This document shows, one piece after another, positions 7,686-38,332 of a stretch of DNA of 64,000 nucleotides. The translations under genes were made by a program, and so were the position numbers. The first letter of the stretch is position 1; the number at the start of each line of letters is the position of its first letter. This DNA is from Gammaproteobacteria bacterium (GTDB lineage: Bacteria > Pseudomonadota > Gammaproteobacteria > SZUA-229), in NCBI GenBank assembly GCA_016744065.1, contig JADGFA010000006.1, positions 49,104-113,103 on the forward strand, read 5' to 3'. The notes under the pieces were generated by a model. That model worked only from the letters and a program-made list of their open reading frames with translations. It was not told where the DNA came from and ran no database searches.

Positions 7686-8753
7686 TTAGAATGTGTACTG
7701 TAATTGAACGCCTGCAATGGTGTTGCTGGTTTCAGCCGCTGTATTGTTATCTTTATCTTCAAAGGTAAAAATTTCAGGTCGGATTCTAAAGCCGCGGGCA
7801 ATCCAGGGAAGGTCAATTGGCATGCTTAAGCCAATCATGGTGCTTTCTGTGTCGACGCTATTGCTTTTTTCTACACCGGAAAAGCCGTAGATAAAGTGAA
7901 TAGCGCCTTTGGTTTCGTCACCGGTAAATCTAAACCCTATATCCATCCAGTACTGTAAAACATCAGCGTCTTCACCTGCGGTTTTGGTGGCATCTGTTAT
8001 GTTGTTTAAACCGCCGATTTTTTGAGTGGTATTGCCCCAGTTTTGGCCTGCACCTATTTCAGTTGCAAAGGTAACTGAACCTACAGCCGTTTTTGCTCCA
8101 ATCGAAATACCTGTTGCGGTTACATCGTCCTCTCCTTCGAATGACTGTTTGGCAATAAACAGGCTGGGAAACAGTTGCCAGTCGAAGGTTTTGTAGGCCA
8201 GACCCATATCCAGGCGTGGTAATGTGGTTTCTGATTCCGCATCATTGGGAGCGTTTTTTACAGTGGGGTCAACCAGAGCAACGGCTAAAGCGCCCTGACG
8301 ATTTAAAAATTTATAGGTATAACGAACCTGGGACAGGCGCCCGGCATTGATATTGCCGTAGTTGTCACCGGAGTTATTGACCATGGCGACATTTGGGTTC
8401 AGGGGGGCAAAGGGTGTAGAGGTTTGACCCGCAAGAAGTTGCCCGGTTTCACTAAAGTCCCATTTTCCATATGCATGACGTACGGTGTTATCGGAATTTT
8501 TCACCGCCATTTCAACATACATGCTGACATTGTCTTCGTTATCCCAGCGCACACGAAAACGAGAATTGTCAGCGACTTCTAATCTGGTTTTTTTAAGATC
8601 AGATGTTGTATTTCCTGCGGAGTCTTTTATTTCATTGTTTTCTGTAAATACATTTGTAAAAACAATGCCGCCAATGGTTGATTTTGCTGTAGCGCTGCCA
8701 TTAATGAGTGCCAGTGCAATACCAGTTGTAATCGGTAATAGTTTGTTTTTCAT
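7686..8753 (-). CDS. outer-membrane porin-like beta-barrel protein
   Basis: A 355-residue protein with a cleavable signal peptide (MKNKLLPITTGIALALINGS, cleaved after ATA) and many alternating hydrophobic strands. It ends in QLQYTF, the terminal-phenylalanine signal of outer-membrane barrels. The ATG at 8753 is chosen because GGAGGTG lies directly upstream; the frame continues 20 codons further without support. It is the last gene of the Aio-like operon, 125 bp after the small exported protein, and a terminator follows. It probably provides a channel for the enzyme's substrate or product, but nothing in the sequence identifies the solute. Confidence 0.75.
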   Translation of the reverse strand: MKNKLLPITTGIALALINGSATAKSTIGGIVFTNVFTENNEIKDSAGNTTSDLKKTRLEVADNSRFRVRWDNEDNVSMYVEMAVKNSDNTVRHAYGKWDFSETGQLLAGQTSTPFAPLNPNVAMVNNSGDNYGNINAGRLSQVRYTYKFLNRQGALAVALVDPTVKNAPNDAESETTLPRLDMGLAYKTFDWQLFPSLFIAKQSFEGEDDVTATGISIGAKTAVGSVTFATEIGAGQNWGNTTQKIGGLNNITDATKTAGEDADVLQYWMDIGFRFTGDETKGAIHFIYGFSGVEKSNSVDTESTMIGLSMPIDLPWIARGFRIRPEIFTFEDKDNNTAAETSNTIAGVQLQYTF

Positions 8754-8878: not shown

Positions 8879-9256
8879 TTAAAAATTTAACAGTGGATCA
8901 GGTGTTTCTATGTTTTGATCGGGCCTGGGCTTCTGGGTCTTTTTTATCTTCGTGTCCCTGGCTTTTTTGATTTTTTTAGAAACAGGTTGATCTTTTTGCT
9001 TTTTCTTTTTAGCTTCAAGTTGCCTTTCGAGAGGGTCTGGAGCTACTAATGCATTTTCTTTTTTGCCGTTTGGTGAAATACTGATATCAGAATCACCGTA
9101 TTTTACTTTTTTATCTTTAGGGGCGACATTTTGTAACAGAGCGTCCGGGGTTTCAATTTCGTTAGCCGTATTGGCTGGGTCTTTAGCATTTACGTTTAAG
9201 CTATGAAATAAGGAAAATAAAATAATTACGAATAAGGCTGACTGTTTTGTTTTCAT
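8879..9256 (-). CDS. small exported lysine-rich protein with three DPL motifs
   Basis: I do not recognise a family for this 125-residue protein. It begins with a Sec signal peptide ending around NVNA at residue 24. The mature part is low-complexity and highly charged (lysine-rich at residues 83-109). It contains three copies of one short motif: IETPDALLQNV (residues 34-44), LVAPDPLERQL (70-80) and IETPDPLLNF at the extreme C-terminus (116-125). The same motif occurs three times in the extra segment of the neighbouring molybdoenzyme. An AGGAG precedes the ATG. It lies 190 bp after the large subunit and before the porin on the same strand. A partner, tether or assembly role is inference. Confidence 0.7.
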   Translation of the reverse strand: MKTKQSALFVIILFSLFHSLNVNAKDPANTANEIETPDALLQNVAPKDKKVKYGDSDISISPNGKKENALVAPDPLERQLEAKKKKQKDQPVSKKIKKARDTKIKKTQKPRPDQNIETPDPLLNF

Positions 9257-9445
9257 TGTGTTCTCCTGAGAACGGGTTCAGTTTAGATTTAAGTGTTGGT
9301 CGATTTCAGTCGTTTCAATTCGTATTCCAGTATCACAACTTGAATGCACTTTGTAGGAAATGATCTCGAAAAAAATAAGTTAACATAAAAAAATAATTTA
9401 CTAAATTTTTAATGAGATTATTATTTCCAGTATTAAGTGTTCCTG

Positions 9446-12367
9446 TTATGTAATGCTGCGTGATTTAAAACTCATCTCAGAAAACGAGTGCTTGTACTTT
9501 GATTCCCCCACTTTTTTAATTATGCCTCTGGCTATTTTATAGCGTGGGCGCTGACTAATCGGGTCAAGGATGCGTCCTGCCAGTGAGTTGGTGATGCCTT
9601 TAGCTGATGGCATATTAAAGTAGGTAAATGTAACGCCTTTTTTTACCGCGTCGGTGACTATGGCAACGGCTTCAAAACTGGCGCTGTCGTACTCTACATA
9701 GCCGTTTTTCTGCATTTCAGAAAAGGTCATATGTTTAACGTCTTCCCAGCCCAGGCCAATGGCCGATTCCAGATTTTTCATAAGCGGGTCAAGTTCTTCA
9801 ATATCAGGATTCATAGGGTTGTCCTTTTCTTTGGGGTTGGGTCCTGTTTTCTGATCACCTAAAAAACTGAGTAGTGGGTCAGGTTCTGTAATGTCTGCGT
9901 TATCGGTGTTTCTTGCATGGATGCCTTTTGCGCCTCTGTATTCATTATCGACCAGTTGTTGTAAAGGATCTTGTTCAACAAGATCATCACTGGCCTGTAG
10001 TGGAATCACACCACGAACTTTTGCATCTTTGTCTGAGTTTGAGTACCCGCCGACTTCAATTGGAATTCGGTCACTGGAAATAACAAGCTGATCACCGCTT
10101 TCAATGCCGCGTTTTTTTGCATCATCAGGATGGATTTCCAGCCAGTTATCAGGCCAGCGTTGTCGGATGTAGGGTCGGCGCATCTGATCATCGAAACCGG
10201 ATTGCCAGATTTCATTAATGCGTCCGGTAGTCACCCAGAGTTCGTTGCCTTTGGGTTTCATAAACTCCCAGTAATCACCAAACATTTCCCAGTTCGCTTT
10301 TAATAAATTAGCGCGTCCGGTTTTGGTTTTAAACTTACGTAACCATTTTGGGTTGATCACGGTTAAACCGCTGGGGGTTCCTGTTTTTAATGTGCTGTCA
10401 TGCAGGCGTTTGGTGCCGATTAATTTACCATCCTCCCAACGAACAGGTGCCTGAATGCCTGTTGTGCCCATGTCTCTTAATACATCATGAGCACGGCGTC
10501 CTTTAGAGCGTGCATATTCAACCAGTGCAACATAACTGGTACGACGGCCACTGTTATAAAAAGCAGCATCTTCAAAGACGTCATTGCTATCTTTCCAGTC
10601 GAAGCCACTTAAGCCCATGCGTTGTGCAAACATGGCAGCAATTTTCCAGTCGGGTTTGGCTTCACCCGGAGCGTCATTGAATTTGGAGTAGAGTCGAATG
10701 CGTCGTTCCCCATTAGCACGTGTCAGGTCTTCTTCACCCCAACCGGCGGCAGGTAAAACAATATCGGAAAATTCAGTATTAATGGGTTTAACCGGGTATA
10801 TATCCTGGTCAACCATCACCATGCCGCCTCTATCAATGCGCCTTTTATATGTTTCGATAATATGTTCTTTATTGAGTTTGCTCGGGCGAATGGAATGATC
10901 ACTGGTCAGGGCTTTCAGGGTTTCGCTTAAGCGTTTGGATGCAACCATGGCGTGAGTCCAGGTGGTGCCAACAACCCAGACAAAACCGACTTTGCCTTCT
11001 TCTACCCAGCGATCCAGATCAATGCCCTGTTTTTTCCAGCCAGGAAATTTTTCCGGGGCTTCGGCTTCTGGGTACTGGCCGCCGGGCATCATGCCGCGCT
11101 GGTGACCACCAAAGCGGCCAATAACCTGCCCAGGTCGATTACCCGCGCCACAAATTAAACCCAATGCGGTAATGGCGGCGGTGTTGCCGTAGTTGTTTGA
11201 CCAGTACAGGCCTTTTTCAAAACCAAATGACGTTTTAGGGCGGCTGCCATCAGCTTTGGGTTTTGCAATCATTTCAGCCGCTTTGAAAATTTGTTCAGCC
11301 GGGATGCCGGTTTTTTCAGCCGCTATGTCCAGCTCAGCATATTTGTATTGGGTAATCCACTCTTTGAAATCATCGAAACCATCAGCCTGAAAAACTTCTT
11401 TATCACGCTCAGTTCGGTTATTAATCCATTTGTTAACAAACTCTGAGTCTTCCCAGTTATTTTCTACAATGATTCTAGCCATGGCATTTAATAATAAAAC
11501 GTCTGTACCCGGGTTTATTTCTAAATACATTCCACCGTTTGCTTCGGCGTAGGCAACCCCCGCTGTTTTTCGCGGAACCACTGAGATTACTTTCATTCCG
11601 TTATTAATGCCTTTCAGTATCCATTCATTAAAAATAATGGTTTTGGATTCAAATGCATCTGTACCAGCAACAAATAGAACATCAGCAGCAGACCAGTCTT
11701 CATAGGCGGGGGAAAAGTTATCAATACCCGCGTCGGACATGCCAGGTGTGTCTGGGCCATGGCCTGTTGGCTGATCATGCACGGCCCATGCGGGGGTTTC
11801 AATACCACGCAAAGCCAGTTTTGTGAGTGCATGGGTGTTTTCCCAATATTGATAAGAAAACATTTTCATTGCCCAGGCCGATTTGCCTCGGGTGTCTATT
11901 ACATATTTGGAAACTTCGGCCATAATATCGATAGCATCGTCCCAGGAAACGCGCTCCAGTTTTCCATTAATACGAATCATGGGGTATTTCAAACGGTCAT
12001 GGGTGAGGGTGTCAGGGTTGTAGCACTTTTGTGCAATCGTACCGCCGCGAATACTATGATCACCGCCAACGTTAACGACTTCAGTATCGCGATCTCCAAT
12101 AATTGCGATATTGTGTGGCTTGCCATTAACCGAAACAATATTGTGTTGCGTAGGACTGATCCAGCCACCGCTTAATGTGGCAACCGGGTAATCCATTTCA
12201 AATATATTATTTTCTGCTTTGGCTGAACCGTCTTTACCGACAGGCCAGCGATAAACTTTATAGCCGCAACCCGTAATGCAGTAATCACATGCAGTCGTAA
12301 AAATTTCTGCATCTTTTGGGGGGAGAGGCACTTTATCAACAGGTGTGCTATCTGATTTATTACTCAT
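9446..12367 (-). CDS. aioA: arsenite oxidase-family molybdopterin oxidoreductase, large subunit
   Basis: This 973-residue protein belongs to the DMSO-reductase superfamily, closest to arsenite oxidase AioA and the related iodate reductase IdrA. Cysteines 27, 30 and 34 (CDYCITGC) with serine 105 in the fourth position predict a 3Fe-4S cluster, as in AioA. The PAAGWGEEDLTRANGERRIR block and the C-terminal SFKSR also match AioA. Of the arsenite-binding residues of Alcaligenes AioA, the first histidine (H197), arginine (R418) and last histidine (H422) are present, but the glutamate position is a proline (205). It is about 145 residues longer than AioA, with a motif-bearing segment near 790-890. 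No Tat signal is present; export presumably rides on the Rieske subunit. The substrate is therefore uncertain. Confidence 0.85.
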   Translation of the reverse strand: MSNKSDSTPVDKVPLPPKDAEIFTTACDYCITGCGYKVYRWPVGKDGSAKAENNIFEMDYPVATLSGGWISPTQHNIVSVNGKPHNIAIIGDRDTEVVNVGGDHSIRGGTIAQKCYNPDTLTHDRLKYPMIRINGKLERVSWDDAIDIMAEVSKYVIDTRGKSAWAMKMFSYQYWENTHALTKLALRGIETPAWAVHDQPTGHGPDTPGMSDAGIDNFSPAYEDWSAADVLFVAGTDAFESKTIIFNEWILKGINNGMKVISVVPRKTAGVAYAEANGGMYLEINPGTDVLLLNAMARIIVENNWEDSEFVNKWINNRTERDKEVFQADGFDDFKEWITQYKYAELDIAAEKTGIPAEQIFKAAEMIAKPKADGSRPKTSFGFEKGLYWSNNYGNTAAITALGLICGAGNRPGQVIGRFGGHQRGMMPGGQYPEAEAPEKFPGWKKQGIDLDRWVEEGKVGFVWVVGTTWTHAMVASKRLSETLKALTSDHSIRPSKLNKEHIIETYKRRIDRGGMVMVDQDIYPVKPINTEFSDIVLPAAGWGEEDLTRANGERRIRLYSKFNDAPGEAKPDWKIAAMFAQRMGLSGFDWKDSNDVFEDAAFYNSGRRTSYVALVEYARSKGRRAHDVLRDMGTTGIQAPVRWEDGKLIGTKRLHDSTLKTGTPSGLTVINPKWLRKFKTKTGRANLLKANWEMFGDYWEFMKPKGNELWVTTGRINEIWQSGFDDQMRRPYIRQRWPDNWLEIHPDDAKKRGIESGDQLVISSDRIPIEVGGYSNSDKDAKVRGVIPLQASDDLVEQDPLQQLVDNEYRGAKGIHARNTDNADITEPDPLLSFLGDQKTGPNPKEKDNPMNPDIEELDPLMKNLESAIGLGWEDVKHMTFSEMQKNGYVEYDSASFEAVAIVTDAVKKGVTFTYFNMPSAKGITNSLAGRILDPISQRPRYKIARGIIKKVGESKYKHSFSEMSFKSRSIT
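9770..9979 (-). repeat. three-copy 30-residue DPL repeat inside the large subunit
   Basis: Within the molybdoenzyme, VEQDPLQQL, ITEPDPLLSFL and IEELDPLMKNL place their DPL triplets at residues 800, 830 and 860, an exact 30-residue period. The linkers are hydrophilic and rich in N, D, K and P, so this is probably an exposed flexible arm. Classical AioA lacks it as far as I can recall. The nucleotide sequences of the copies have diverged, so it is an old repeat kept for its protein motif. Confidence 0.75.
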
Positions 12368-12382
12368 AATATAATTACTCCT

Positions 12383-12931
12383 TTAAGAAATATTTGAGGT
12401 GTGGCCATAGATCAGCCCCATAATGCCGGTAACATAAATATTGTCGCCAACGATCTCCAGGCGTGCCTGGGGTAAGCTTTCTGTTGCGTGACCTGAGATC
12501 ACCATGCCATGACGGCTTAAATCAAAAGTGGTTAAGTGTAAAGGGCAGGGGCCCATTGCTTTATGTTTGGGCTTATAGGTGCCATTGAGTGGGCCTCCCA
12601 TATGGGTGCATAAATTACTGAAGGCGACAATGTCTTTATCTTTGCCAACACCACCACCTGCGGCTTCTCCTAGCTTAACCAGTACAAAAGTGGATACAGG
12701 ATTTTCAGGGGGGTACATAAAGTCAACAGCTTCATCCTGTTTTAATGTGCTGACAGAGCCAATTTTTATTCTTGGATAATCTTTTACCTGTAGCTTCATT
12801 GCGCCAGCGATACCGGGGACGGTTGTTAAGATAATAGTGCTGGCTCCAGCTAATAGAAAATGCCGTCTTGAAGTGCAGGTGTGATTTGAGTCTTTAATGG
12901 ACTCAGTATTTATTTCTATATTGCTCATCAT
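12383..12931 (-). CDS. aioB: arsenite oxidase-family Rieske iron-sulfur subunit
   Basis: This 182-residue protein is the small subunit of an Aio-type enzyme. It has a twin-arginine signal (SRRHFLLAGAS, residues 22-32) that would carry the folded complex to the periplasm. The Rieske 2Fe-2S ligands are in CTHMGG and CPLH. The extra cysteine pair forming a disulfide in quinol-oxidising Rieske proteins is absent, which is normal for AioB and usually means a higher dependence on soluble electron acceptors. The gene heads the operon, 15 bp before the large subunit. Two ATGs are adjacent; AGAGGA before them fits the second (12928) slightly better. Confidence 0.85.
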   Translation of the reverse strand: MMSNIEINTESIKDSNHTCTSRRHFLLAGASTIILTTVPGIAGAMKLQVKDYPRIKIGSVSTLKQDEAVDFMYPPENPVSTFVLVKLGEAAGGGVGKDKDIVAFSNLCTHMGGPLNGTYKPKHKAMGPCPLHLTTFDLSRHGMVISGHATESLPQARLEIVGDNIYVTGIMGLIYGHTSNIS

Positions 12932-33163: not shown

Positions 33164-33239
33164 TACATTAGATTTTTTGTTTGACCACACAAAAAGTTAT
33201 AGCTATGACAATAAACTACAAATGCAGGAGTCTTGCATA

Positions 33240-34166
33240 ATGAAAAAACGTTTCCTAGTGGCTGCGGTTGCAGCAACATTAGTTTCACCTTTGGCCGCTC
33301 AAGCGGACGCTACTGTCTACGGTAATGTTCACTTGAGTATTGATTCATTTGATTCAGCTGATAACCTGGATATGAATAGCAATACATCAGCTATTGGTGT
33401 TAAAGGTAAAGAAGATTTGGGTGGTGGTATGACTGCACTGTTCAAAATTGAATTTCAGGTTGATCCATCTGAGCGTAATTCAGGCGGTGCATTGACAGAT
33501 CGTGACCAGTGGGTTGGTCTGAAAGGTGCAATGGGTACAGTTAAGTTCGGTACTATGTCTAATAACTACAAAATGATGGGTGGTAAGCTTGACCCAATGT
33601 ACCGTACTCGTTTAGAAGGTCGTGGCTTTATGGGCACTCAATCTGGTTTGCACGGTGGTGCTGGCGAGAATGGTGGTCGTAGTACAAACACATTACAGTA
33701 CGTTTCTCCTAAAATGAGCGGCATGAATGTAGTATTTAACTACACAATTGCAGGTCAGGATGACGAGACTATGGGTATTGGTGTTCACTATAAGACTAAG
33801 CAAGTTATTGCTTTTGTTGATTATTTAGATGTTCAGGGTGTTCCTTCACCTGGTGAATCAGAAGCAGCATTCAAGCTTGGTGGTAGCTATAAGATGGGCG
33901 CTATGACTTTCGGTCTTCAGTTTGAGTCTGTTGAAGATGTTGTTGGTGGTGATATCTTCTTTGCAAGCTTTAATTATCAGGTGAATGATAATGATAATGT
34001 TGCTGTTACTTTAGGTGATAACGACACTGATGATGTGGGCTACGCGTTTATGTATAACCACAAAATGAGCAAGCGCACTAATGTGTATGCTGGTTACGGT
34101 GATAATGCAAGTAACGAAGCTGCTGATGATCAGGATATTACAGTTGGTATCCGTCACAAGTTCTAA
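33240..34166 (+). CDS. general outer-membrane porin
   Basis: A 308-residue Gram-negative porin of the OmpC/PorB type. It has a Sec signal peptide (MKKRFLVAAVAATLVSPLAA, cleaved after AQA) and a mature start DATVYGNVHLSID. It carries the porin block GVKGKEDLGGGMTALFKIEFQ and a terminal phenylalanine (GIRHKF). The ATG at 33240 is chosen over one 63 bases upstream because AGGAG precedes it and the signal peptide starts there. Codon use is strongly biased, as in highly expressed genes. It has its own promoter and terminator. Confidence 0.93.
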   Translation: MKKRFLVAAVAATLVSPLAAQADATVYGNVHLSIDSFDSADNLDMNSNTSAIGVKGKEDLGGGMTALFKIEFQVDPSERNSGGALTDRDQWVGLKGAMGTVKFGTMSNNYKMMGGKLDPMYRTRLEGRGFMGTQSGLHGGAGENGGRSTNTLQYVSPKMSGMNVVFNYTIAGQDDETMGIGVHYKTKQVIAFVDYLDVQGVPSPGESEAAFKLGGSYKMGAMTFGLQFESVEDVVGGDIFFASFNYQVNDNDNVAVTLGDNDTDDVGYAFMYNHKMSKRTNVYAGYGDNASNEAADDQDITVGIRHKF

Positions 34167-34456: not shown

Positions 34457-37400
34457 ATGAGTTCAAATACTCGAATTCGCGAAATTCCCTATAACTATAC
34501 TTCTTTTTCTGATCGTGAAATTATTATTCGTTTCCTTGGTGAGCCTGTCTGGTTGCTGATCAATGAATTACGTGATGAGCGACAGACAGGCCACTCTGCA
34601 CGGATGTTATTTGAAGTGCTGGGTGATATGTGGGTAGTGCAGCGAAATCCTTTTTTACAGGATGACTTACTGGAAAATCATCGGCGTCGTAAGCAGCTTA
34701 TAGCCGCACTGAATCATCGAATTGAACAAATTGAGCAGCGTGCTAACGGTAACCAAAAAGCTATTGAACTAGCGGTTGCTGCCCGTATAGCAGTAAAAAC
34801 GTTTTCTGACTGGTTTGGCGCACAAAATACATTACGCATAAAAGCGCTTAAGTCTCTGTCAAAAGCAACGAGCAAGGATAATGTCGATTTTAGTGGTGTG
34901 GCGAGAGTAAGTCATGTTACAGATGCCACAGACTGGCGTGTTGAGTTTCCATGTGTTGTATTAACACCTGATACAGAAGATGAAGTGCCTCAGCTTGTTA
35001 AGCGCTGCATAGACCTGGGTTTAACGCTAATAGCAAGGGGTGGGGGTACGGGATATACCGGTGGTGCGGTACCGCTTTATCAGAATACGGCGATTATCAA
35101 TACGGAAAAATTACAGGCAATTGGTACTTTTGAGCATAAACAAATAGCGGGTATTGAAAAACGGGTGCCTGTTGTGAGAGCTGAAGCAGGCGTGGTAACA
35201 CGTAGAGTTTCGGAAGTCGCTGAGCTTAATGGGCATGTATTTGCAGTTGACCCAACCTCACAGGATGCATCGACTATTGGCGGTAATATAGCCATGAATG
35301 CCGGCGGTAAAAAAGCCGTAATGTGGGGGACAACACTGGATAACCTGGTGTCATGGAGAATGGTAACGGCCGATGGGAACTGGCTGGATGTGGAGCGTAT
35401 TAATCATAACCTGGGGAAAATTCATCAACAGGAAGAAGTAAAGTTTAGATTAAGTCGTTTTGATTCTCAAACACAGCAGTTAATATGTGAACCTGAAGTT
35501 CTGGTGTTTAAAGGTGCTTCATTACGTAAAGAGGGTCTGGGTAAAGATGTAACTGATAAGTTTTTAGGTGGATTACCGGGTGTTCAGAAAGAAGGCTGTG
35601 ATGGCATTATTACTTCAGCGCATTTTTTGCTACATACTATGCCACAGCAGGCACGTACCATTGCACTCGAATTTTATGGGCAGGATTTACAGCGCTCAGT
35701 TCCGGCTATTGTCGAAATAAAAGATTACCTGGATAACAACCCGAATGTTCTGTTGTCTGGACTTGAGCACCTGGATGATCGATATATTCGCGCCGTCAAT
35801 TATAGCCCGAAAGCGTCCCGTGGTTGCCTGCCAAAAATGTTGCTGGTGGCCGATGTTGTTGGTGTAGATGATGCCGCCGTTAGTGAAGCTGCTTCACAGG
35901 TTGTGCGTCTGGCCAATGCGCGTGATGCAGAAGGCTTTATTGCGGTTAGTGCGGAGGCAAGAAAGAGTTTCTGGTCTGAGCGTAGTCGTACAGCGGCTAT
36001 TGCTGCGCATACTAATGCATTTAAAATTAATGAAGATGTGGTTATTCCGTTAGATCGGCTGGCAGATTATACATTGGGTACAGAAACCATTAATGTGTTT
36101 CAGTCTATTCGTAACAAACTAGCGATGCTTGATGCTTTAACTGATTATATTAATAGTGAGCAATTGCTGTTAAGGGAATCTGATATTGAATCATCGCAGT
36201 ATCTGCTTCCACGTTTCTCAGATGCAATTAAATTAATAGAGCGGGCACGATTACGTTGGACTGCATTATTAAATAATTTTACCAATAATATTCAGAGCCA
36301 GAAAGCGTATTTACTGGAAACTGAAATAACATCAGGTGCTTTTGTCAGTGACTTGAGTGTTATACAGTCTGTGCTGAACGCGGATGTTAGAGTTTCATAT
36401 AAAAAAGAAGTTGAAGAACCTTTAAAGACATTATTTAGTGGGCATGAATTAACATACTTACATTTACAGTTTGAAGAAATACATAGCCAGGTTTTATCCA
36501 GTAGAATTTTTGTTGCTCTGCATATGCATGCAGGTGATGGAAATGTGCATACTAATATTCCGGTGAATTCAAATGATTACAACATGATGCAGGAAGCAGA
36601 GCGTGTCGTTGACCAGATTATGGAATTAGCCGCTTCGCTTAATGGTGTTATTTCGGGTGAGCATGGTATTGGTTTAACCAAAATGCAATATCTTGATGAT
36701 TCGATTATCGATGCATTTGCGGATTATAAAAAGAATGTTGATCCAGGCGATGTGTTTAATAAGGGGAAACTACAGCGTAATACAGGTGGACTGGAGTCGG
36801 CGTATACACCTTCATTAAGGTTATTAAAGCAGGAAGCTCTGATCCTTGAAGAAAGTGAACTGGGCGAGCTTAATGATGATATTGCCCATTGTTTGCGTTG
36901 TGGAAAATGTAAACCGGAATGTTCTACACATGTGCCAACGGCCAATATGCTGTATTCGCCGAGAGATAAAATTCTGGCGACAGGTTTGATTATTGAAGCT
37001 TATTTATATGAAGAGCAGACTCGCCGAGGTATTTCATTAAGGCATTTTGATGAAATGAATAACGTTGCGGATCACTGTACAATTTGTCATCGTTGTTTAA
37101 ATCCTTGTCCAGTGAATATTGATTTTGGTGACGTGACGATAAAAATGCGTCATATTCTTAAAAAACAGGGTAAGCGTAGAGAAAATATAGGTACAAAAAT
37201 GTCTATGGCATTTTTAAACGTAACTTCACCGGGCAAGGTAAAGATAATGCGGGCCGGATTAATTCAGGCAGGTTATCTGGGTCAGCGATTAATGCACAGC
37301 TCGTTAAAAATGATTCCAGGTGTGTTACCTAATTCTTTAGGTGCAGGTTATAAAAAATCTAAATTGTATCGGCCTAAATCAACCACGGGTAAACCTGTTG

Positions 37401-38332
37401 TAAAAGAGCAGGTGATTCAGTTTTTTAGTAAACCTATGCCGGCTAATGTGCCTACGGGGACAATGCGTTCAGTGCTGGGAATTGAAGACGATAAAACAGT
37501 TTCAATTTTACGAGACCCACAAAAAACAGATGTGAATAGTGAGGCAGTATTTTATTTTCCTGGTTGTGGTTCTGAACGATTATTTAGTCAGATTGGTGTT
37601 GCGACCCTTGCCTGGTTATATGAGCTTGGAATTCAAACGGTTTTACCTCCAGGGTATTTGTGCTGCGGTTATCCTCAGACAGCATCTGGTGATATTGAAA
37701 AGGGCAAGCAGATTACAACCAGTAATCGTGTGCTATTTCATCGAATGGCGAATACATTAAATTATCTAGATATTAAAACGGTGGTGGTATCCTGTGGTAC
37801 CTGTATTGATCAGTTATTAAAATACCAGTTTGAGCATATTTTTCCTGGGTGTCGTTTACTGGATATACATGAGTATTTGATGGAAAAAGGTGTAACGATG
37901 GATGGTGTTGGTGGTACAAAGTATTTGTATCATGAACCCTGTCATACACCGATGAAACAGCATAATGGTACAGAGGTAGCCAGTGTATTAATGGGTAAGG
38001 ACGTCACATTATCAGATCGTTGCTGTGGTGAGTCAGGGACTTTTGCTATTTCACGGCCAGATATTGCAGCCCAGGTAAAACATAAAAAACTCGAAGAGCT
38101 AAAGCTGGATATTAAAAATTTAAGTGGTCATGATAAAGCATTAAATAATAATGTGAAAATGCTGACGTCATGTCCTTCCTGCCAACAGGGCTTAGAGCGT
38201 TATCGTGAAGATACGAATATGGACGTAGCTTATATTCTGGTCGAACTTGCAAAATTCAAGCTAGGGGATAACTGGCAGAAAATGTATTACGAAAAAGTAA
38301 AGCAAGGTGGAATTGAGCGAGTTCTTTTGTAG
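34457..38332 (+). CDS. giant FAD/Fe-S oxidoreductase with DUF3683 domain
   Basis: A 1291-residue single-chain oxidoreductase fusing flavin and iron-sulfur parts. Order of domains: DUF3683 (about residues 5-120), an FAD-binding type 4 domain with [15 protein letters not shown] (about 195-210) and [20 protein letters not shown], and an FAD-oxidase C-terminal domain with [12 protein letters not shown]. Two 4Fe-4S motifs follow ([11 protein letters not shown] from C812, [12 protein letters not shown] from C874), then two CCG domains (CCGYPQ and CCGESG). The layout combines GlcD- and GlcF-like halves, so a 2-hydroxyacid such as lactate or glycolate is the probable substrate, with electrons to quinone. 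That is inference; the family is unassigned. It stands alone with its own promoter. Confidence 0.9.

What the first reader, a model, noticed from the sequence alone, without database searches (positions are those of the whole stretch)
8879..12367. A shared DPL motif links the molybdoenzyme and a small secreted protein
Seen directly: the Aio-like large subunit carries three copies of [I/V]xxxDPLxxx[L/V] at residues 800, 830 and 860, exactly 30 apart. The neighbouring 125-residue exported protein carries three more (positions 38, 74, 120), one forming its C-terminus (IETPDPLLNF). The copies differ at the DNA level but keep D-P/A-L, so the peptide is under selection. Both proteins should end up in the periplasm. 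Inference: both present the same ligand to a common receptor, or the small protein mimics or competes for the enzyme's arm, for example to assemble, tether or dock the enzyme with an electron carrier or the porin. I know of no described system like this.
Basis: partly seen in the sequence, partly recalled or inferred. Interest (0 to 1): 0.85.

Follow-up and report, generated by a model that had tools for sequence, protein, structure and literature searches.

The report
Shared docking motif links enzyme, porin
A predicted molybdenum enzyme and a small, predicted-to-be-exported protein encoded next to it carry the same short repeated peptide motif, and in 11 of the 13 gene neighbourhoods examined a dedicated, predicted outer-membrane porin gene comes next; the motif likely grips that porin from the inside and would hold the enzyme where its substrate is predicted to enter.

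Summary
The enzyme's DPL repeats sit in a ~90-residue arm, predicted disordered, that marks one clade of AioA/IdrA-like enzymes (91 tips, support 0.969). In 79 members Asp800 is present in 79, Asp830 in 78, Asp860 in 58; the rest of the arm varies. In 13 of 13 insert-bearing loci with gene context the next gene encodes a small, apparently exported protein, little conserved between lineages outside its motifs: three copies in the 12 complete ones, the last 5-9 residues from the C-terminus. A motif matrix trained on enzyme arms alone finds them (13 of 13, p<=0.001; 0 of 178 trimmed control ORFs).

A porin gene follows in 11 of 13, against 0 of 95 insert-lacking loci as far as their flanks reach; 85 of those 95 have idrP1/P2-like peroxidase genes, seen in 0 of 13 here. 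The porin has the predicted 16-strand trimeric-porin fold; against the nearest other porins, its inserted residues all fall in three periplasmic turns.

Best reading (binding untested): the motif docks enzyme and small protein on the porin's periplasmic face, placing the enzyme at the substrate's entry point. Receptor identity is the weak step. My searches of open-access papers found no such system.

The parts
12383..12931 (-). Rieske [2Fe-2S] small subunit (AioB/IdrB-like) with a Tat-type signal (SRRHFLLAG)
   Evidence: TIGR02694 115.9 bits (cut-off 95.65), PF00355; the Tat motif is recalled and read by eye
9446..12367 (-). Molybdopterin large subunit, 973 aa, AioA/IdrA-like, of the insert-bearing clade
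   Evidence: TIGR02693 448.8 bits (cut-off 359.05), PF18465, PF00384, PF01568; clade support 0.969
9770..10042 (-). Predicted disordered arm (residues 776-866) inserted in the C-terminal domain; positions 786, 800 and 830 are gaps in 124 of 124 insert-lacking homologues aligned
   Evidence: AlphaFold2 pLDDT 28-49 per 10-residue block over 791-870
9962..9970 (-). Arm motif 1, Asp800-Pro-Leu (VEQDPLQQL)
   Evidence: Asp 79 of 79, Leu/Ile/Met at +2 79 of 79; low-confidence helix 801-806
9872..9880 (-). Arm motif 2, Asp830-Pro-Leu (TEPDPLLSF)
   Evidence: Asp 78 of 79, Leu/Met at +2 79 of 79; low-confidence helix 831-834
9782..9790 (-). Arm motif 3, Asp860-Pro-Leu (EELDPLMKN), weaker: not present in all of the clade; no helix predicted on it
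   Evidence: Asp 58 of 79
8879..9256 (-). Small three-motif protein, 125 aa, Sec-like signal by eye, no known family
   Evidence: no Pfam or NCBIfam hit; only itself found among 5.8 billion proteins at E<=1; positional counterpart in 12 of 12 other insert-bearing loci
9137..9145 (-). Small-protein motif 1, Asp38-Ala-Leu (IETPDALLQ)
   Evidence: matrix score 23.0
9029..9037 (-). Small-protein motif 2, Asp74-Pro-Leu (LVAPDPLER)
   Evidence: matrix score 14.7
8891..8899 (-). Small-protein motif 3 at the C-terminus, Asp120-Pro-Leu (IETPDPLLNF)
   Evidence: matrix score 22.1
7686..8753 (-). Dedicated porin, 355 aa from the start used by P0122; predicted 16-strand barrel of the trimeric-porin fold, C-terminal Phe
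8295..8309 (-). Porin periplasmic turn T3 (residues 149-153), holds a module-only residue (150)
   Evidence: gap in 23 of 23 outgroup porins
7908..7922 (-). Porin periplasmic turn T6 and first residue of the next strand (278-282), module-only residues 279-282
7788..7823 (-). Porin periplasmic turn T7 (residues 311-322, PIDLPWIARGFR) with a module-only three-residue insertion, here Pro-Trp-Ile
   Evidence: three extra residues in 96 of 97 module-type porins (the other is a fragment), 0 of 23 outgroup porins; Pro-Trp-[Ile/Met] in 11 of 11 porins beside insert-bearing enzymes

Best explanation
The enzyme's arm and the small protein carry the same Asp-Pro-Leu-Leu-type peptide motif, in up to three copies each, which likely docks both on the periplasmic face of the predicted porin encoded with them, so that the enzyme would be held under the channel through which its substrate is predicted to enter. 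Shown by sequence: the shared motif, its conservation inside an otherwise variable arm, the three-copy layout of the small protein with one copy at its very C-terminus, and co-occurrence of arm, small protein and porin where relatives have idrP1/P2-type peroxidases. Predicted: the arm is disordered, with low-confidence short helices at motifs 1 and 2 (I read Asp as helix cap and Leu-Leu as the sticky face), and the porin has the trimeric-porin fold. Inferred, untested: that the periplasmic turns with module-specific insertions (T3, T6, T7) form the docking site; that three motifs suit a trimer; and that the small protein is a trivalent adaptor or competitor that sets how many enzymes sit on one trimer. 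The substrate is unknown; an oxyanion is a guess from the enzyme family.
For: Motif conservation: Asp800 79/79, Asp830 78/79, Asp860 58/79, against a median top-residue frequency of 0.32 over the arm. Small protein next to the enzyme in 13 of 13 insert-bearing loci; last motif 5-9 residues from the C-terminus in 12 of 12 complete ones (His for Asp there in L011); motif 1-2 spacing 26-31 in enzymes and 28-36 in small proteins. Enzyme-trained matrix finds the small proteins in 13 of 13 (p<=0.001) and 0 of 178 control ORFs. Porin next to the small protein in 11 of 13, in 0 of 95 insert-lacking loci within their held flanks, and in 1 of 369 genomes of the window's class at E<=1e-15, the window's own. 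36 of 84 insert-bearing protein clusters share their longest-contig length with a porin cluster, against 0 of 36 insert-lacking. The module-only insertions of the porin are all in periplasmic turns, the two outgroup-only ones in extracellular loops; the T7 insertion is Pro-Trp-[Ile/Met] in 11 of 11 porins with proven context. Precedent: colicin E9 uses several short epitopes on one disordered chain to bind two subunits of one OmpF trimer, OBS1 from the periplasm (PMC8561637, passages).
Against: No binding was tested and no complex was modelled. L006 has the small protein but no adjacent porin (only a porin fragment at a contig end elsewhere in that draft genome); L007's draft genome gave no porin match. 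Module-specific porin positions are enriched near periplasmic turns at +-2 residues (11 of 21 against 68 of 332, p=0.0008), +-3 (p=0.005) and +-4 (p=0.002), but not at +-0 (p=0.16) nor against module-conserved positions only (p=0.15). Net charge of the periplasmic turns does not differ from outgroup porins (3.8 against 4.1). The third arm motif is missing in part of the clade, so three-for-a-trimer is not strict. Own-pair motif similarity exceeds cross-pair only modestly (18.1 against 16.1, p=0.012), the own partner ranks first in only 2 of 13, and descent is not controlled. The matrix does not separate every case: with whole sequences, five other ORFs in the 13 loci score as high as or higher than the L012 small protein.
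Confidence: 0.48

Rival explanations
1. The motif binds the enzyme itself (body or Rieske subunit): arms of one enzyme dock on a neighbour, and the small protein bridges or caps enzymes, making oligomers or clusters. The porin would be only the channel.
For: Explains why enzyme and small protein share the motif. Clade-specific changes exist in the enzyme body: a loop near residue 325 is missing that the 10 insert-lacking rows printed all have, and residues such as 199-201, 324-329, 426, 610-611 and 939 differ.
Against: In the single-chain model the arm has low confidence (pLDDT 28-49), so it gives no sign of packing on the body; coordinates were not inspected. Several body changes lie beside the conserved His197 and Arg418/His422 in sequence, so they may reflect substrate instead. 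Does not explain the porin's confinement to the module or its periplasmic-turn insertions.
Confidence: 0.2
2. The motif binds a third periplasmic partner encoded elsewhere (an electron carrier or envelope protein), and the small protein tethers or competes for that partner.
For: By eye, a small cytochrome c gene lies near 3 of 13 loci (L007, L011, L120).
Against: By eye no carrier gene recurs in most loci. A narrow EXPDPL DNA scan of the window's genome found one site besides the small protein's, as many as its reversed control (1), so no further motif client appeared.
Confidence: 0.17
3. The small protein is a dedicated export or assembly chaperone that mimics the arm to keep it from binding its target too early, and is not part of the final complex.
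For: Small size, lysine-rich stretches between motifs by eye, always directly after the enzyme gene.
Against: Three of 13 (L005, L006, L011) may be lipoproteins by eye (MLGC, ASGC), which would suggest a stable envelope part, though none matches a strict lipobox pattern. Mimicry still needs a receptor, so this adds to the best reading more than it replaces it.
Confidence: 0.1
4. The motif is a chance or compositional feature of acidic linkers with no binding role.
For: The motif is short and degenerate; D[PE][LIM] counts alone exceed shuffles clearly in only 7 of 13 small proteins (p<0.02).
Against: Near-invariant Asp in an otherwise variable arm; enzyme-trained matrix p<=0.001 in 13 of 13; 0 of 178 controls.
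Confidence: 0.03

Closest known systems
Iodate reductase module idrABP1P2 (Denitromonas sp. IR-12, Pseudomonas sp. SCT; PMC8692401)
   Same: Same plan: Rieske plus molybdopterin subunit, signal only on the Rieske subunit (one section and passages read). The insert-lacking homologues here mostly have the peroxidase layout of this module, so I take it as the nearest characterised relative; no confirmed IdrA sequence was compared.
   Different: No idrP1/P2-like gene seen in 13 of 13 insert-bearing loci; arm, small protein and porin instead; residues near the conserved His197 differ and a loop near 325 is missing. The paper set its IdrA score cut-off so as to exclude genomes without adjacent IdrP1/P2.
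Arsenite oxidase AioAB
   Same: Passes the TIGR02693 and TIGR02694 cut-offs; same subunit plan.
   Different: In the two PDB alignments printed, the match stops at residue 766 and resumes at 894: the arm has no counterpart.
Shewanella DmsEFAB, extracellular iodate/DMSO reductase (PMC9732548, PMC9048795; listing and start of abstract only)
   Same: A molybdoenzyme encoded with an outer-membrane porin (porin role of DmsF recalled).
   Different: Extracellular, with multihaem cytochrome and an MtrB-type porin (recalled); no shared motif or adaptor known to me.
Colicin E9 epitopes on OmpF (PMC8561637, passages)
   Same: Works like it: several short linear epitopes on one disordered chain engage more than one subunit of a trimeric porin, one of them from the periplasmic side.
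   Different: An imported bacteriocin using a general porin; no sequence relation claimed or tested.
MlaA-OmpC (PMC10719372, passages)
   Same: A lipoprotein bound to a trimeric porin that recruits a soluble periplasmic protein.
   Different: Folded MlaA in the membrane, phospholipid transport; no shared linear motif in the passages seen.
Encapsulin cargo-loading peptides (recalled, not searched)
   Same: Works like it: different clients share one short peptide read by one dedicated receptor in the operon.
   Different: Cytosolic protein shell, not an outer-membrane porin.
DcaP porin (PDB 6eus)
   Different: 16% identity; no enzyme docking known to me (recalled; PMC12338516 seen in a listing only).

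Membership tests
Iodate reductase IdrABP1P2 | Two di-haem peroxidase genes (idrP1, idrP2) adjacent | tested here: not met
   0 of 13 insert-bearing loci, 8 of which hold at least 4.8 kb upstream of the enzyme (the others 0.7-1.9 kb); 85 of 95 insert-lacking loci have at least one, and 9 of the other 10 hold under 1 kb upstream
Iodate reductase IdrABP1P2 | Catalytic subunit inside the clade that has the peroxidase context | tested here: inconclusive
   Insert-bearing enzymes form their own clade of 91 tips, support 0.969, with no insert-lacking member inside; but the tree was midpoint-rooted with neither AioA nor a confirmed IdrA in it, and insert-lacking tips lie on both sides of that root, so sister or nested is open
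Iodate reductase IdrABP1P2 | Iodate reduction | not testable with these tools
   needs enzyme assay
Arsenite oxidase AioAB | Large-subunit model TIGR02693 above cut-off | tested here: met
   448.8 against 359.05 bits; sources also give this name to insert-lacking relatives, so it is not specific
Arsenite oxidase AioAB | Rieske small subunit TIGR02694 above cut-off | tested here: met
   115.9 against 95.65 bits
Arsenite oxidase AioAB | Substrate-pocket residues of AioA (His195, Glu203, Arg419, His423; recalled) | tested here: inconclusive
   His197, Arg418 and His422 lie at or near the matching places; the Glu203 region differs (PTGHGPDT)
Trimeric general porin (Porin_4, DcaP-like) | 16-strand barrel fold | tested here: met
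Trimeric general porin (Porin_4, DcaP-like) | Pfam Porin_4 match | tested here: not met
   0 families for the window porin (E<=0.1); 3 of 93 aligned relatives match Porin_4
Trimeric general porin (Porin_4, DcaP-like) | Trimer | not testable with these tools
   the fold matches are trimers (recalled, and in some titles); this porin's state was not tested
Any known family for the small protein | Profile match | tested here: not met
   0 Pfam and 0 NCBIfam families at E<=0.01; PHROGs and PADLOC not searched

The most novel reading that the evidence does not exclude
A previously undescribed periplasmic docking system: a peptide code of the form x-x-[P/E/D]-D-P-L-L, shared by a molybdoenzyme's disordered arm and a trivalent adaptor protein, plugs both into the underside of a dedicated porin trimer, making an outer-membrane metabolon in which the substrate passes from channel straight into enzyme, and the adaptor-to-enzyme ratio sets occupancy.
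Probability: 0.4. Interest if true: 0.92.

Novelty: categorically new. Interest (0 to 1): 0.82.

Why it matters
Porins are usually described as passive sieves and periplasmic respiratory enzymes as freely diffusing. A conserved peptide code that ties an enzyme and an adaptor to one dedicated porin would be a metabolon at the outer membrane, in a clade of arsenite/iodate-type molybdoenzymes whose substrate is unknown. It would make the question of what these peroxidase-less enzymes do testable through the porin's selectivity, and offer a short portable tag for fixing proteins to the inner face of the outer membrane.

Tried and rejected
Homologue search with the small protein alone found only itself; its relatives were found by gene position instead. 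Counting D[PE][LIM] alone is too strict: six small proteins have a single such site; L007's is cut by the contig end, and the other five show three sites by the enzyme-trained matrix, which replaced it. In the matrix test the first 20 residues of each control ORF were cut as a stand-in for a signal peptide; scored whole, one of those controls (L010:8323-8652) ties with the lowest small protein at 17.2, and four longer ORFs (231-787 aa) score 17.2-23.0. Motif covariation between an enzyme and its own small protein is weak and not controlled for descent; not used as main evidence. A profile of the porins matched no solved structure by sequence except marginal hits to processing peptidases, taken as chance. 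A narrow EXPDPL DNA scan of the window's genome found no further clear client. Wider genome searches found no insert-bearing locus beyond those held: (E<=1e-100, 1e-150 in the rest; few candidates per genome scored); the other matches end near residue 770 of the model, bar one enzyme split over two frames (G785). Periplasmic-turn charge did not differ. In 95 insert-lacking loci 11 of 5,523 ORFs of 60-250 aa reach the lowest module score; none is a separate gene directly after the enzyme. Literature: searched for such an enzyme arm, motif or porin docking; no title or abstract start listed describes it, and only PMC8692401, PMC10719372 and PMC8561637 were opened, in part. Only open-access full texts are held.
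Full report
What is there. On the minus strand the window holds a four-gene run: a Rieske subunit (12383-12931), a 973-residue molybdopterin large subunit (9446-12367), a 125-residue protein with a Sec-like signal by eye (8879-9256) and a barrel protein (7686-8753). The large subunit passes the arsenite-oxidase model (448.8 bits, cut-off 359.05), but the two AioA alignments printed stop at residue 766 and resume at 894. They are at 800, 830 and 860, as stated; the small protein's are at 38 (DAL), 74 and 120. All six differ in their codons.

The arm is a clade marker and the motif is what selection keeps. A search with residues 690-973 returned 749 proteins, 120 listed; 84 of those (P0002-P0085, the window's own included) carry the insert and 36 do not. 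In 79 insert-bearing rows Asp800 is present in 79, a Leu/Ile/Met two residues on in 79, Asp830 in 78, Leu/Met after it in 79, and Asp860 in 58; the median top-residue frequency over 776-866 is 0.32. In a tree built without the insert columns, the 91 insert-bearing tips (80 protein clusters, 11 locus copies, partly the same proteins; four fragments left out) form one clade (support 0.969) apart from 124 insert-lacking ones. The tree is midpoint-rooted, without AioA or a confirmed IdrA, so whether this clade is sister to the others or nested among them is open. AlphaFold2 leaves the arm disordered (pLDDT 28-49 per block of ten over 791-870); the only helices of four or more residues in that stretch, 801-806 and 831-834, sit on motifs 1 and 2, at low confidence; motif 3 has none.

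The small protein recurs although its sequence outside the motif is hardly kept between lineages (by eye; one search found only the query itself). Of 80 loci from the genome scan, 11 (L003-L013) have the whole insert-bearing enzyme; with the window and the split locus of genome G065 (L029/L120) that makes 13, titled Alteromonadaceae, Algicola, Methylococcaceae, Thiomargarita, Gammaproteobacteria, Sulfurimonas and Helicobacteraceae. In 13 of 13 the next gene on that strand encodes a 95-165-residue protein with an apparent export signal (L007's runs off the contig). The 12 complete ones have three sites, the last 5-9 residues from the C-terminus (in L011 it reads HHPLL, without the Asp); L007 shows two. 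Three (L005, L006, L011) may be lipoproteins by eye, though none fits a strict lipobox pattern. Motif 1-2 spacing is 26-31 in the enzymes and 28-36 in the small proteins. A matrix made from 144 distinct enzyme-arm windows gives the small proteins p<=0.001 against shuffles in 13 of 13, and 0 of 178 other ORFs of 90-180 aa in the same loci, with their first 20 residues cut, reach the lowest of them. Over all 651 ORFs of 60 residues or more, scored whole, the 25 best are the 13 enzymes and 12 small proteins; the thirteenth (L012) ranks about 30th, behind or level with five unrelated ORFs. The small proteins took no part in training.

A module swap. In 95 insert-lacking loci (92 of them aligned and confirmed without the insert), 85 have at least one idrP1/P2-like peroxidase gene, and 9 of the other 10 hold under 1 kb upstream of the enzyme. 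None shows this porin at E<=1e-5, though 6 hold under 500 bases downstream and the 26 loci from the genome search hold at most about 1.2 kb. In the 13 insert-bearing loci no such peroxidase gene was seen (8 hold at least 4.8 kb upstream) and the porin follows the small protein in 11. Of the two others, L006's genome has a porin fragment at another contig's end, and L007's contig ends 465 bases after the enzyme and its draft genome gave no match. Thiomargarita has both kinds of enzyme: one with the insert beside small protein and porin (L011), one without it beside a peroxidase gene (L119). A genome of the window's own genus, G050, has the peroxidase layout without the insert (L122). Among protein clusters, 36 of 84 insert-bearing ones share their longest-contig length with a listed porin cluster (120 of 124 listed), against 0 of 36 insert-lacking; length identity stands in for contig identity, and five offset controls gave 0, 0, 0, 1 and 0 collisions. 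In 369 genomes of the window's class (unnamed by the tool; taken as Gammaproteobacteria) the porin occurs once, in the window's own genome (E<=1e-15), while 14 have an enzyme of the wider family. Reyes-Umana et al. (PMC8692401, author names recalled; one section and passages read) report that all idrA-clade neighbourhoods have idrABP1P2 and set their cut-off to exclude genomes without adjacent IdrP1/P2. The clade here fails that criterion, so calling it an iodate reductase is not supported.

Mechanism. A shared motif plus co-occurrence suggests that enzyme and small protein meet the same partner. The porin is the only other gene seen to be tied to the arm, was found only with it, and has changed on the side that should face the periplasm. 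I therefore hold that the motifs dock both on the porin's inner face (0.48). Colicin E9 shows that one disordered chain with several epitopes can occupy two subunits of one porin trimer, one from the periplasmic side, and MlaA-OmpC that a porin can be a platform for periplasmic proteins. Binding to the enzyme body is the main rival. Enzyme residues near the conserved His197 and Arg418 also differ from the insert-lacking relatives (HDQPTGHGPD against HDTP-SDVTS and the like), so the substrate may have changed together with the docking.

Limits. Thirteen loci with context is a small number, several from draft genomes; no complex was modelled; periplasmic location, trimer state and substrate are inferred. 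'Categorically new' refers to the combination of motif, adaptor and dedicated porin; the enzyme and barrel folds are known, and the absence of a description rests on the searches named in Tried and rejected.

Noticed in passing
L007:1024-1314, L011:6074-6709, L120:2639-2935: Small c-type cytochrome genes (CxxCH read by eye) near the module in three of 13 loci, a possible electron partner; none seen beside the module genes in the window.
   Followed up: partly
window 9446-12367, enzyme residues about 318-334: The insert-bearing clade lacks a loop (SGFGQGTRNTPWQWRTTWG-like) present in all 10 insert-lacking rows printed; Glu324 faces Gly in 124 of 124 insert-lacking rows. It might be a contact of the peroxidase-type system.
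   Followed up: partly
L122:3350-10123: A same-genus genome (G050) has the peroxidase-type module with a different 339-aa barrel-like protein (by eye) directly after the enzyme; another porin pairing worth a look.
   Followed up: no
L011 and L119: Thiomargarita nelsonii holds both enzyme kinds in one genome, each with its own neighbours.
   Followed up: partly
window 33177-34166: A second, ordinary-looking general porin (329 aa, by eye), an in-genome control for porin binding tests.
   Followed up: no
window 34457-38332: A 1291-aa apparent fusion of FAD-linked oxidase and iron-sulfur (CCG-type) domains, judged by eye only.
   Followed up: no
L011:4395-4600: A short duplicated stretch before the Thiomargarita small-protein gene that repeats its first codons.
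   Followed up: no
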